From Prevotella communis (GTDB lineage Bacteria > Bacteroidota > Bacteroidia > Bacteroidales > Bacteroidaceae), in NCBI RefSeq assembly GCF_022024115.1, contig NZ_CP091792.1, positions 1,736,001 through 1,800,000 of the forward strand: 64,000 nt of DNA, given 5' to 3'. Shown here piece by piece: positions 4,696 to 7,467 of the stretch (position 1 is the stretch's first letter; each line of letters starts with the position of its first letter). Under the pieces are notes generated by a model that did not search any database, was not told the DNA's origin, and saw only the letters and a list, made by a program, of their open reading frames with translations. The translations under genes were made by a program, and so were the position numbers.

Positions 4696-5997
4696 ATGAA
4701 GACGATTGATTTTATTTCGCTTGGTTGCTCTAAGAACTTGGTGGACAGCGAGAACCTGATGGGCATGTTTGAGGCCAATGGCTTCCACGTGACCCACGAC
4801 AGCGACGACCCGCAAGGCGAGGTCGTTGTGGTGAATACCTGTGGTTTTATTGCTGACGCCAAGGAGGAAAGTATTAATACCATCTTGGAACAGGTGGCTC
4901 GCAAGAATGCTGGTGAGGTGGAAAAGATATATGTGATGGGATGTCTCTCAGAGCGCTATCTGGCCGACCTCGAAGCCGAGATTCCTGAAGTGGACGGATG
5001 GTACGGAAAGTTCAATTATAAGGAGCTATTAAAAAGACTCACCCCCAGCCCCTCTCTGCTCAGAGAGGGGAGTGGTCAGACTCGAAAACTGACTACGCCA
5101 CGCCATTATGCCTATATCAAGATTAGTGAGGGATGTGACCGCCACTGTGCGTACTGCGCCATCCCGCTGATTACGGGCAGACACCAGAGCCGCCCCATGG
5201 AGGAGATCCTGGACGAGGTGCGCTGGCTGGTGAGTCAGGGTACGAAGGAGTTTCAGGTCATCGCACAGGAACTGACCTACTACGGCATAGACCTGTATGG
5301 CGAACAGCGTATTGCCGAACTCATAGAACAGATGGCTGATATCGAGGGCGTGGAGTGGATTCGTCTGCATTACGCCTATCCCACACATTTCCCCTGGCGC
5401 CTGCTCGACGTGATGCGCGAGAATAAAAACGTGTGCCGCTACCTGGATATCGCCCTGCAGCATATCAGCGACCATATGTTGACACGTATGCGCCGCAACA
5501 CCACGAAGGCGGAGACGATGGCACTCATCGAGCGGATGCGACGTGAGGTGCCCGGCATCCATATCCGCACCACGCTGATGGTGGGATTCCCAGGCGAGAC
5601 CGACGAGGACTTCCAGGAGCTGGTGGACTTCGTGAAATGGGCGCGCTTTGAGCGTATGGGCGCCTTTGCCTATTCCGAGGAGGACGGTACCTATTCTGCC
5701 GACCACTACGAGGATGACGTGCCCGAGGACGTGAAGCAGCGCCGACTGGATAAGCTGATGCGCGTGCAGCAGAATATCAGTGCGGAGATAGAGGCCGAGA
5801 AGGTGGGACAGACGCTGCCCGTGATTATAGACCGCACGGAGGGCGACTACTACATTGGTCGCACGGAGTTCTGTTCGCCCGAGGTAGATCCCGAGGTGCT
5901 GATTCGTCAGGACGTGAAACTGGAGATTGGAAAGATATATCAAGTGAAGATAACCGACTCTGAGGAGTTTGACCTCTACGGAGAAGTGATTAATTGA
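4696..5997 (+). CDS. rimO: Ribosomal protein S12 methylthiotransferase RimO
   Basis: This radical-SAM enzyme adds a methylthio group to the conserved aspartate of ribosomal protein S12. The N-terminal methylthiotransferase domain has cluster cysteines in LGCSKN (C11), NTCGF and MGCLSERY. The radical SAM motif C147-x3-C151-x2-C154 is CDRHCAYC, and a C-terminal TRAM domain covers about the last 65 residues. Its 433 residues are close to the family length. The variable linker before TTPRHYAYIKISEGCD holds an unusual stretch, LTPSPSLLREGSGQTRK, encoded by a palindromic repeat (5035-5083), so a repeat appears to have entered the gene in frame. The stop codon lies inside a 14-bp tandem repeat. Confidence 0.96.
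   Translation: MKTIDFISLGCSKNLVDSENLMGMFEANGFHVTHDSDDPQGEVVVVNTCGFIADAKEESINTILEQVARKNAGEVEKIYVMGCLSERYLADLEAEIPEVDGWYGKFNYKELLKRLTPSPSLLREGSGQTRKLTTPRHYAYIKISEGCDRHCAYCAIPLITGRHQSRPMEEILDEVRWLVSQGTKEFQVIAQELTYYGIDLYGEQRIAELIEQMADIEGVEWIRLHYAYPTHFPWRLLDVMRENKNVCRYLDIALQHISDHMLTRMRRNTTKAETMALIERMRREVPGIHIRTTLMVGFPGETDEDFQELVDFVKWARFERMGAFAYSEEDGTYSADHYEDDVPEDVKQRRLDKLMRVQQNISAEIEAEKVGQTLPVIIDRTEGDYYIGRTEFCSPEVDPEVLIRQDVKLEIGKIYQVKITDSEEFDLYGEVIN
5035..5083. repeat. REP-like palindrome inserted in frame in rimO
   Basis: A perfect 10-bp stem pairs 5049-5058 (cccctctctg) with 5061-5070, with a 2-nt loop. The word agactc flanks the block at 5035-5040 and 5078-5083 like a short target duplication. 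The same C-rich/G-rich architecture recurs between genes at 63061-63098. Confidence 0.75.
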
Positions 5998-6024
5998 TAA
6001 TTGACAATTGATAATTGACAATTG
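5993..6024. repeat. 14-bp tandem repeat spanning the rimO stop codon
   Basis: The unit attgataattgaca occurs at 5993-6006 and 6007-6020, followed by attg. It makes up almost the whole rimO to HU linker and contains the rimO TGA. Confidence 0.85.
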
Positions 6025-6025
6025 G

Positions 6026-6313
6026 ATGAACAACAAGGAATTTATAAGCATACTGGCTGGTCGCACGGAGAAGAAAACCTCCGAGACACAGAAGATGGTG
6101 GAGTCGCTGATAGCAGTGATGAGCGACTGTTTTCAGGAGGGCGACAGCGTACAGATGGCTAATTTCGGCAATTTTGAAGTGAAGAAGAAACTGGAGCGTG
6201 TGATGGTGAACCCCACCACCGGACAGCGTATGCTGGTGCCACCAAAACTGGTGCTGGCCTTCAAGCCTAATCCTACCTGGAAGGATAAGATCAAGAAAGG
6301 AGGAGCCGAGTAA
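6026..6313 (+). CDS. HU/IHF-family DNA-binding protein
   Basis: This 95-residue protein has the HU/IHF fold, including the hydrophobic helix region [20 protein letters not shown] and the beta-arm segment with [12 protein letters not shown]. Members bend and compact DNA in the nucleoid. I start it at 6026 (MNNKEF) because the upstream in-frame codons lie in a tandem repeat. Its stop overlaps the next start (TAATG at 6311-6315), which couples it to the membrane-anchored HU-LysM protein, so the two HU domains are probably made together and may pair. Confidence 0.88.
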
Positions 6314-7467
6314 TGGGTAAGATATTCATGGCAGAGCTGGCCGACATGCTGGCTCAGAAAGCTGGTATCAGCAAGCGCGAGGCACAGCAGTTCCTGACGG
6401 ATTTCGTTGAGACGATCCAGGACGGTGTGAACAATGATAAACTGGTGAAAATCAAGGGCCTAGGCACGTTTAAGGTGATTGACGTGGATGCGCGCGAGAG
6501 CGTCAACGTGAACACGGGCGAACGCGTCACCATCGACAGTCACCAGAAACTGACGTTTACGCCCGATGCGGCGATGAAGGAACTGGTGAACAAGCCCTTC
6601 TCGCAGTTTGAGACCGTGGTGCTTAACGACGGCGTAGAGTTTGACGATGAGCCCGAGGTGGAAGAGCCCGCTATCGCTGAGGAGACACCGGAGCCCGTTG
6701 TAGAACCGACTCCCGAGCCGGAACCAGAACCAGTTGTCGTTCCCGAGCCGGAACCAGAGCCAACGATTGTTCCTGAGCCGGAACCCGAACCGGTTGTCGT
6801 TCCTGAACCGGAACCTGAACCCGAGCCTATGCCCGAGCCCGAGCCTGAGGCAGCCCCCGCTCCTGTAGAAGAGGATGTGGCAGAGGAAGCAGAGGAAAAG
6901 TCGGCTTCCTACTGGTGGTTGTGGCTGCTGATAGCCATTATCGCCTGCGTCATCAGTTTCGCTGGAGGCTATCTCTACGGCCGTCATATGGATATGCAGG
7001 AACTCTTTGCAGAAGACGCTTCTGCCGACACTGCCGCCGTACAGGCAGCACCCGTAGTAGAGGTGAAGGATACCGCCAAGGTAGACACCATGCAGGTGAA
7101 ACCCGAGGCAGAGGAGCAGGCAGAGGTGAAAGAGCCCGAGGTGAAACAGCCCGAGCCCGAGGTGAAGCAGCCAGAGCCAGAACCCGATTGGAAGAAATAC
7201 GAGGCGATGGACGTGAGGGTACGCACGGGAGCCTATGGCATCGTGGGTACCGACCGCATGGAGAAGGTACGTCCCGGCGACACCATGAAACGTATTGCCA
7301 GACGTACGTTGGGCGAAGGAATGGAATGTTATATAGAGGTTTACAATAATATCACCACGAGCGCCCTGAAAGAGGGGCAGGAGGTGAAGATTCCAAAACT
7401 GAAACTAAAGAAATTCTTAAGACAGAACAAAACAAACAAAAAAATTAACTATGGCAGAAAATATTGA
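6313..7467 (+). CDS. Membrane-anchored HU-domain/LysM protein
   Basis: This 384-residue protein joins three unlike parts. Residues 1-90 are an HU-type DNA-binding domain ([21 protein letters not shown]). Residues about 115-195 are an acidic Pro-Glu linker with three exact-length 10-residue repeats encoded by 30-bp units at 6721-6810. One transmembrane helix follows at about 201-223 ([19 protein letters not shown]). After a second PEP-rich spacer, residues about 300-365 look like a LysM domain ([33 protein letters not shown]). I infer that it tethers DNA in the cytoplasm to the peptidoglycan layer. Topology rests on the domain types, because charges around the helix are not decisive. Its 3' end overlaps the moxR start by 17 nt. 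Confidence 0.8.

What the first reader, a model, noticed from the sequence alone, without database searches (positions are those of the whole stretch)
6313..7467. HU domain anchored in the membrane with a periplasmic LysM domain
One protein appears to bind DNA in the cytoplasm, cross the inner membrane once and bind peptidoglycan outside. It is coupled to a free HU gene and overlaps the Bat operon. A DNA-to-cell-wall tether would link nucleoid position to envelope growth. This is the most promising little-described system in the window.
Basis: partly seen in the sequence, partly recalled or inferred. Interest (0 to 1): 0.75.

Follow-up and report, generated by a model that had tools for sequence, protein, structure and literature searches.

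The report
Two-gene HU tether, DNA to wall
This bacterium encodes a pair of DNA-binding-type proteins, one of them threaded through the inner membrane and ending in a cell-wall-binding domain, and the pair looks like one device that ties the chromosome to the cell wall.

Summary
In detail: window 6313-7467 encodes 384 residues with an HU domain (7-93), acidic linker, one membrane span (about 197-223) and a LysM domain (318-361); it starts on the stop codon of a free HU gene (6026-6313). The reading needs one change. In the membrane HU ("HU-B") the arms are near-neutral and the arm proline is gone in 52 of 52 Bacteroidales members; the free HU ("HU-A") has basic arms and keeps the proline in 61 of 61, though not in 4 more diverged relatives. 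HU-A precedes HU-B in 61 of 61 loci. Each forms one group across two classes of the phylum. Five genomes fuse them, with the HU-B arm cut short; where HU-B's HU domain is lost from the site, HU-A is lost too. I think HU-A and HU-B form an asymmetric dimer: HU-A grips DNA, HU-B anchors it to membrane and wall. The genome also encodes an HU-HU-span-SPOR protein, a known kind, so this is a LysM, two-gene variant of that kind. The Bat overlap is local. DNA binding, wall binding and topology are inferred.

The parts
6026..6313 (+). HU-A: free HU protein, 95 aa, basic arms, keeps the arm proline (NPTTG)
   Evidence: PF00216 E 4.9e-22; adjacent to HU-B in 61 of 61 loci; groups with HU-A of a second class
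6313..7467 (+). HU-B: HU - acidic linker - membrane span - LysM protein, 384 aa
6331..6591 (+). HU domain of HU-B (residues 7-93); arm residues 54-81; V66 stands where HU/IHF have the arm proline
   Evidence: Pfam; AlphaFold2 model of residues 1-118, mean pLDDT 80.8, matching IHF/HU chains, best Foldseek E 7.7e-9; alignments
6589..6648 (+). conserved tail after the HU fold (residues 93-112, [20 protein letters not shown]), a family signature
   Evidence: N93, P95, F96, F99, T101 invariant in 20 rows; N93 and P95 invariant in 23 rows that include the second class; not seen in G129 and G133; residues 102-118 have pLDDT under 50
6649..6900 (+). acidic Pro/Glu-rich linker, by inference cytoplasmic (residues 113-196)
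   Evidence: net charge -28 over the 81 residues from 116 on; 42 to 247 residues long in the 61 members and net negative in 60
6901..6981 (+). single membrane span (residues 197-223)
   Evidence: hydropathy
7264..7395 (+). LysM domain (residues 318-361)
   Evidence: Pfam; AlphaFold2 model pLDDT 80.3; Foldseek matches are weak (best E 0.016, none under 0.001), many of them LysM proteins
4696..5997 (+). RimO (radical SAM, TRAM), frequent upstream neighbour, not part of the device
   Evidence: upstream in 38 of 40 close loci, 2 of 11 other-family loci and 0 of 9 f130 loci

Best explanation
A two-component tether. HU-A and the HU domain of HU-B pair as an asymmetric HU heterodimer (IHF-like). HU-A supplies the basic, usually proline-tipped arm that grips DNA; HU-B supplies mainly the dimer body and carries the complex, through a long acidic linker, to one span of the inner membrane and a LysM domain on peptidoglycan in the periplasm. 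The nucleoid would thus be held to the wall at many low-specificity sites. Shown from sequence: architecture, adjacency, arm asymmetry, fusions, joint loss at the site, shared ancestry. Inferred: heterodimer, DNA binding, N-in topology, peptidoglycan binding, and any role in nucleoid position or segregation.
For: (1) HU-A lies directly upstream of HU-B in 61 of 61 loci read: 52 Bacteroidales and 9 of family f130 of another class. (2) On the HU core alone, HU-A rows of both classes form one group (support 99/94) and HU-B rows another (95/94) (12 of the 52 and 9 of the 9 pairs used). (3) Five genomes of three genera carry HU-A and HU-B in one frame ahead of a span and a LysM: G128, G253, G260, G124 and G144 (its LysM read by eye). 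(4) Of 17 family genomes without a first-pass match, 15 could be judged: both halves present in 6, both HU parts gone from the site but span+LysM left in 3, nothing left at the site in 6; never one half alone. (5) Arm net charge +4.2 / +4.9 for HU-A, +0.5 / +0.6 for HU-B (Bacteroidales / f130); proline kept in HU-A in 61 of 61 and lost in HU-B in 52 of 52 Bacteroidales; HU-B arm 8-21 residues in 11 of 15 diverged relatives, HU-A arm 26-28 in those 11. (6) Lys+Arg more frequent on the N side of the span: 34 members against 18, 9 ties, Wilcoxon p 0.0024. (7) In 3 of 5 genomes of genus g124 whose site I read, the HU-HU-span-SPOR gene lies downstream on the same strand.
Against: HU-B of f130 keeps the proline (9 of 9), so its loss is a Bacteroidales feature, though the charge asymmetry holds there. 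HU-A lacks the proline in 4 diverged genomes: G209, G235, G124, G144. Another free HU of this genome, L002, also lacks it while staying basic, so proline loss alone does not show loss of DNA binding. The window's own span flanks are uninformative (1 K/R each side), and the 61 members are related, so the p value overstates the case. LysM is below Pfam's cut-off in 9 of 9 C-terminal pieces from other families and 4 of 9 f130 members do not match the LysM profile built here. Span+LysM persists without HU in G137, G156, G171. A diverged HU-A elsewhere in the 'loss' genomes is not excluded. In G229 and G266 (genus g124) no SPOR gene was found in the 1.7-1.8 kb read downstream. No experiment.
Confidence: 0.6

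Rival explanations
1. One reading: HU-B homodimers bind DNA by themselves and tether it; HU-A is an ordinary free HU that happens to be co-transcribed.
For: HU-B has a complete HU fold, keeps one arm arginine in 61 of 61, and in f130 keeps the proline.
Against: Fusions, joint loss, 61 of 61 adjacency and arm decay in HU-B.
Confidence: 0.13
2. Regulatory capture: HU-B holds HU-A at the membrane and releases it according to wall state, so the device senses the envelope and acts on transcription or DNA packing, with no mechanical tether.
For: The evidence for a heterodimer fits this equally well; gene overlap (25 of 61 loci with a 4- or 1-base overlap) would keep the amounts matched.
Against: The five fusions cannot release HU-A unless cut; no further domain above its cut-off was seen in the Pfam scans of HU-B and of four fusions.
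Confidence: 0.13
3. The HU pair has become a protein-protein scaffold (as proposed for CCDC81, recalled) and no longer touches DNA; the protein organises envelope machinery.
For: Arm loss in HU-B; acidic linker; span+LysM kept without HU in G137, G156, G171; HU-A without the proline in 4 diverged genomes; membrane-related neighbours FtsY and MoxR/Bat in many loci.
Against: HU-A keeps basic arms, with the proline in 61 of 61 of the main set, and full-length arms in the diverged relatives.
Confidence: 0.11

Closest known systems
HU-CCDC81 prokaryotic proteins with SPOR (Pfam PF18174, PF18175, PF05036)
   Same: Two HU domains, one membrane span, C-terminal wall-binding domain; one is encoded in this genome (L052: PF18174 5e-28, PF18175 3.7e-27, SPOR 3.5e-8; span). 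The natural fusions found here have the same order HU-HU-span-wall domain.
   Different: SPOR, not LysM; both HU domains in one chain; HU-B reaches PF18175 only below its cut-off (28.9 of 35 bits). PF18175 matched in 34 of 37 genomes of the order tested and in 0 of 9 of f130, which have the LysM kind.
IHF alpha/beta and HU (DNABII family)
   Same: HU fold, Pfam E 2.2e-23; single-chain IHF is the best solved-structure match by sequence (1.8e-11); a pair of unequal subunits is the IHF pattern (recalled).
   Different: One subunit is membrane-anchored with decayed or shortened arms; scores lie far below the HU and IHF equivalog cut-offs of NCBIfam.
FimV/HubP polar landmarks of gammaproteobacteria
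   Same: LysM-like domain, in P. putida shown to bind peptidoglycan, one transmembrane region, long acidic cytoplasmic part (abstract of PMC12918733; only the abstract and section list were seen).
   Different: Reverse order of parts, a TPR-type FimV domain and no HU; reach the chromosome only through other proteins (recalled).

Membership tests
HU/IHF (DNABII) domain | Sequence match to PF00216 over the whole domain and the HU fold | tested here: met
   HU-A 4.9e-22, HU-B 2.2e-23; HU-B model matches IHF/HU; HU-A was not modelled
HU/IHF (DNABII) domain | Proline at the arm tip and basic arms | tested here: not met
   HU-B of Bacteroidales: V/I in 52 of 52, mean arm net charge +0.5. HU-A meets it in 61 of 61 of the main set, not for the proline in G209, G235, G124, G144
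HU/IHF (DNABII) domain | Binds and bends duplex DNA | not testable with these tools
   needs EMSA or a structure with DNA
LysM domain | Match to PF01476 above cut-off | tested here: met
   22.0 bits, cut-off 20.9; 26.2 bits on the C-terminal piece; 21 of 23 relatives match at E up to 0.01. Below cut-off in 9 of 9 pieces from other families; the two of these compared with solved structures match LysM proteins at best E 1.4e-4 and 1.2e-5
LysM domain | Binds peptidoglycan or another GlcNAc polymer | not testable with these tools
   not assayed
HU-CCDC81_bac / SPOR tether | HU domains matching PF18174 and PF18175 above cut-off | tested here: not met
   PF18175 28.9 bits against 35; PF18174 not listed at E up to 1
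HU-CCDC81_bac / SPOR tether | C-terminal SPOR domain | tested here: not met
   LysM instead; the two SPOR matches of the genome lie elsewhere
Bat (aerotolerance) operon | Conserved place next to MoxR/BatA-E | tested here: not met
   MoxR downstream in 30 of 40 close loci, 7 of 11 and 0 of 9 in further loci
FimV/HubP | Cytoplasmic TPR-type FimV domain | tested here: not met
   no such match in Pfam or NCBIfam at E up to 1

The most novel reading that the evidence does not exclude
A one-armed HU heterodimer: a nucleoid protein pair in which one subunit gave up its DNA arm to become the membrane and wall anchor, kept since before two classes of Bacteroidota parted (or passed between them as a pair), and running beside a second HU tether (SPOR) in the same cell, so that general wall (LysM) and division-site wall (SPOR binds septal, stripped glycans; recalled) each hold the chromosome.
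Probability: 0.4. Interest if true: 0.82.

Novelty: new variant of a known kind. Interest (0 to 1): 0.63.

Why it matters
How Bacteroidota place and segregate their nucleoid is, to my knowledge, poorly known. The arm loss gives a sharp biochemical prediction, and the natural fusions give ready single-chain constructs.

Tried and rejected
Rejected: the Bat operon as the functional partner (neighbourhood counts). Rejected: HU-B as a plain member of HU-CCDC81_bac (below cut-off). Rejected: the 339-residue frame in G601 as a family member; it is an ordinary HU behind an unrelated stretch of frame. Rejected: 76 of the 109 (of 296) matching genomes of the phylum-wide search, which match only through short frames of ordinary HU type; 33 have long frames, 3 in the window's family and 30 in f130. 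In one search, G138's only match is a 115-residue frame, so 133 rather than 134 of 151 is the better count. A class-wide sample (109 genomes, E up to 1e-13) gave family members only in 4 rows, all of the window's order. A genome without a match is not proof of absence: 6 of 17 such family genomes proved to have the pair in diverged or fused form. Not fetched with wide flanks: 2 of the 13 other-family hits (G041, G080) and 21 of the 30 long f130 hits.

Led nowhere: ten literature searches; four gave no paper, and in the listings of the other six I saw none on an HU-LysM protein or on bacterial HU-CCDC81. Of the listed papers I opened two: PMC12918733 (abstract and section list) and two passages of PMC10434189, which lists a B. 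thetaiotaomicron LysM protein and an HU protein as separate rows of an iron-response table, with no link between them. The library lacks most subscription journals. I recall a 2017 Cell Cycle paper by Burroughs and colleagues on new HU clades that predicts a chromosome-partition role for Bacteroidetes HU proteins; it is not held, I saw nothing of it, and I cannot say whether it mentions LysM. Promoter scan: 3 found, 1.9 expected. Foldseek on the LysM model: nothing below E 0.001.

After the self-check I lowered confidence in the best explanation from 0.62 to 0.60, because HU-A lacks the proline in four diverged genomes and the SPOR neighbour is missing in two of five g124 genomes; rivals were raised to match.

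Full report
What is there. The ORF at 6313-7467 codes for 384 residues. It carries an HU domain at 7-93 (PF00216, E 2.2e-23), an acidic Pro/Glu-rich linker, one hydrophobic span and a LysM at 318-361 (PF01476, E 1.6e-4, 22.0 bits against a cut-off of 20.9). The C-terminal 92 residues alone match LysM at 7.7e-6, and 21 of 23 relatives match it at E up to 0.01. AlphaFold2 on residues 1-118 (20-row alignment) gives an HU fold, mean pLDDT 80.8, which Foldseek places with IHF and HU chains, best E 7.7e-9. The C-terminal piece gives pLDDT 80.3; its Foldseek matches are weak (best E 0.016) but many are LysM proteins. The free HU gene 6026-6313 (HU-A) ends on the base that starts the finding (HU-B). 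The genome, G000, is one contig of 3.57 Mb; Prevotella communis L017 is a near relative (99% over residues 1-135).

The pair is the conserved unit. I dropped L045 (fragment), L050 (broken frame) and L051. In the 40 left, HU-A is the gene directly before HU-B in 40; RimO is upstream in 38 and MoxR downstream in 30. Whole-genome searches with the first 118 residues (A1) matched 134 of 151 genomes of the family at E 1e-12 (one of these, G138, only by a short frame), 15 of 119 of the order at 1e-15 and 109 of 296 of the phylum at 1e-12, of which 33 are long frames: 3 in the window's family and 30 in one family, f130, outside the window's class. I fetched 11 loci from other families of the order (of 13 hits) and 9 from f130 (of 30): HU-A directly precedes HU-B in 20 of 20. 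With the window that is 61 of 61. In 25 of 61 the frames overlap by 4 bases or 1 (longest-frame starts).

Same module in two classes. A tree of 53 HU domains (12 of the 52 Bacteroidales pairs, the 9 f130 pairs, 11 ordinary HU or IHF-like rows) on the HU core puts HU-A of both classes on one side of a branch (99/94, 98% of 200 bootstrap trees) and HU-B of both on one side of another (95/94, 94%) (the tool warns of few columns). With the tail included HU-B has 99/95 and HU-A 99/94. The tail after the HU fold (N, then P and an aromatic) is shared by HU-B of both classes, though not by G129 and G133. So the asymmetric pair is old, or was passed on as a pair. Outside the window's family the LysM is divergent: below Pfam's cut-off in 9 of 9 pieces tested. 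The LysM profile built here matches 11 of 11 other-family members of the order at E 4e-4 or better, and 5 of 9 f130 members at E 0.013 or better; 4 do not match, but one of those four, L128, and another f130 piece, L126, match solved LysM proteins at best E 1.2e-5 and 1.4e-4.

Division of labour. Over 61 pairs the arm of HU-A has mean net charge +4.2 (Bacteroidales, 52) and +4.9 (f130, 9), that of HU-B +0.5 and +0.6; three ordinary rows have +5, +3 and +3. The arm proline, which intercalates in HU and IHF (recalled), is kept in HU-A in 61 of 61 and in HU-B of f130 in 9 of 9, but is V (50) or I (2) in HU-B of Bacteroidales. In 15 diverged relatives read by eye (5 fused, 10 not), the HU-B arm, 28 residues in the window, is down to 8-21 in 11, and not shortened in G258, G189, G129 and G133. 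HU-A keeps an arm of 26-28 residues in the 11. Results against: HU-A of G209 (Q), G235 (L), G124 and G144 lacks the proline, and L002, another free HU of this genome, lacks it too while staying basic.

Fusion and joint loss. The 17 family genomes without a first-pass match were re-searched with HU-A and HU-B profiles, and the site was read where it could be found. G128, G253, G260, G124 and G144 have HU-A and HU-B in one frame, followed by a span and a LysM (Pfam above cut-off in G260 and G124, below it in G128 and G253; read by eye in G144). G209 has both as separate genes. G137, G156 and G171 have a span+LysM protein without HU and no HU-A at the site. G122, G123, G143, G160, G175 and G186 have neither at the site. 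G131 and G226 could not be judged (no RimO match). So in 15 of 15 judged genomes the two HU halves stand or fall together at this site. In the nine loss genomes the best HU-A-profile match elsewhere (49.6-71.2 bits) lies at a place that also matches the HU-B profile, so it looks like ordinary HU; a strongly diverged copy elsewhere is not excluded. Fused genes are classical evidence that the separate homologues act together.

Topology. The HU domain begins at the N end, which leaves no room for a signal peptide. Across 61 members Lys+Arg within 15 residues of the span are more frequent on the N side (34 against 18, 9 ties, p 0.0024). This fits N-in, C-out, but members are related and the window itself is 1 against 1.

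A second tether. G000 also encodes a protein with HU-CCDC81_bac_1, HU-CCDC81_bac_2 and SPOR and a predicted span between. Of 46 genomes tested, PF18175 matched at 1e-6 in 34 (33 above its cut-off): 34 of 37 in the order, 0 of 9 in f130. In genus g124 this gene lies downstream of HU-B on the same strand in G150 and G253 (about 130-150 bases on) and G260 (about 1.3 kb on), but was not found in the 1.7-1.8 kb read downstream in G229 and G266: 3 of 5 read. The fused HU-A-HU-B-span-LysM proteins have the same plan as HU-HU-span-SPOR. I read the finding as a LysM, two-gene variant of that kind.

How it would work. HU-A and HU-B pair through the HU body; HU-A's arm holds DNA with little sequence preference; the linker of HU-B (42 to 247 residues, net negative in 60 of 61) spans the gap from nucleoid to membrane, and its acidity would keep it off DNA; the span and LysM fix the complex to membrane and wall. 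Many such weak links could spread or position the nucleoid and couple it to wall growth. The dimer, DNA binding, wall binding and the cell-level role are inference.

Novelty. My paper searches (listed in Tried and rejected) showed nothing on HU-LysM; they do not cover most subscription journals, and a 2017 paper that I recall on HU clades could not be read. I therefore claim a new variant, not a new kind.

Noticed in passing
G000:C1 about 2083969-2084964 (L052:1321-2316, start codon not determined), outside the window: HU-CCDC81_bac_1 + HU-CCDC81_bac_2 + span + SPOR protein: a second candidate DNA-to-wall tether in the same genome; a close downstream neighbour of HU-B in G150 and G253 of genus g124.
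   Followed up: partly
window 7451-7467: 17-base overlap of HU-B with MoxR; in Prevotella communis L017 two bases lie between the two frames, so the last residues of HU-B in the window are a local extension.
   Followed up: partly
window 5994-6024: Three overlapping copies of TTGATAATTGACAATTG (0, 2 and 0 mismatches) between RimO and HU-A, 0.01 expected by chance; they cover a promoter-like match, in a scan that found 3 where 1.9 are expected.
   Followed up: partly
L235, L239 (G156, G171) and L238 (G137): Span+LysM proteins at the same site without any HU domain and without HU-A; those of G156 and G171 have a coiled-coil-like cytoplasmic part by eye.
   Followed up: partly
L180:2859-3922 (G261): HU-B in two frames: the HU half stops and a span+LysM frame starts beside it; sequencing error or a real split, not judged.
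   Followed up: no
window 6649-6900: The PEPEPE linker is made of near-repeats and differs in length between close relatives (81 residues in the window, 89 in L010, 91 in L017).
   Followed up: no
L002 (G000:C1:2383504-2383773): A further free HU of this genome has basic arms but no arm proline.
   Followed up: no
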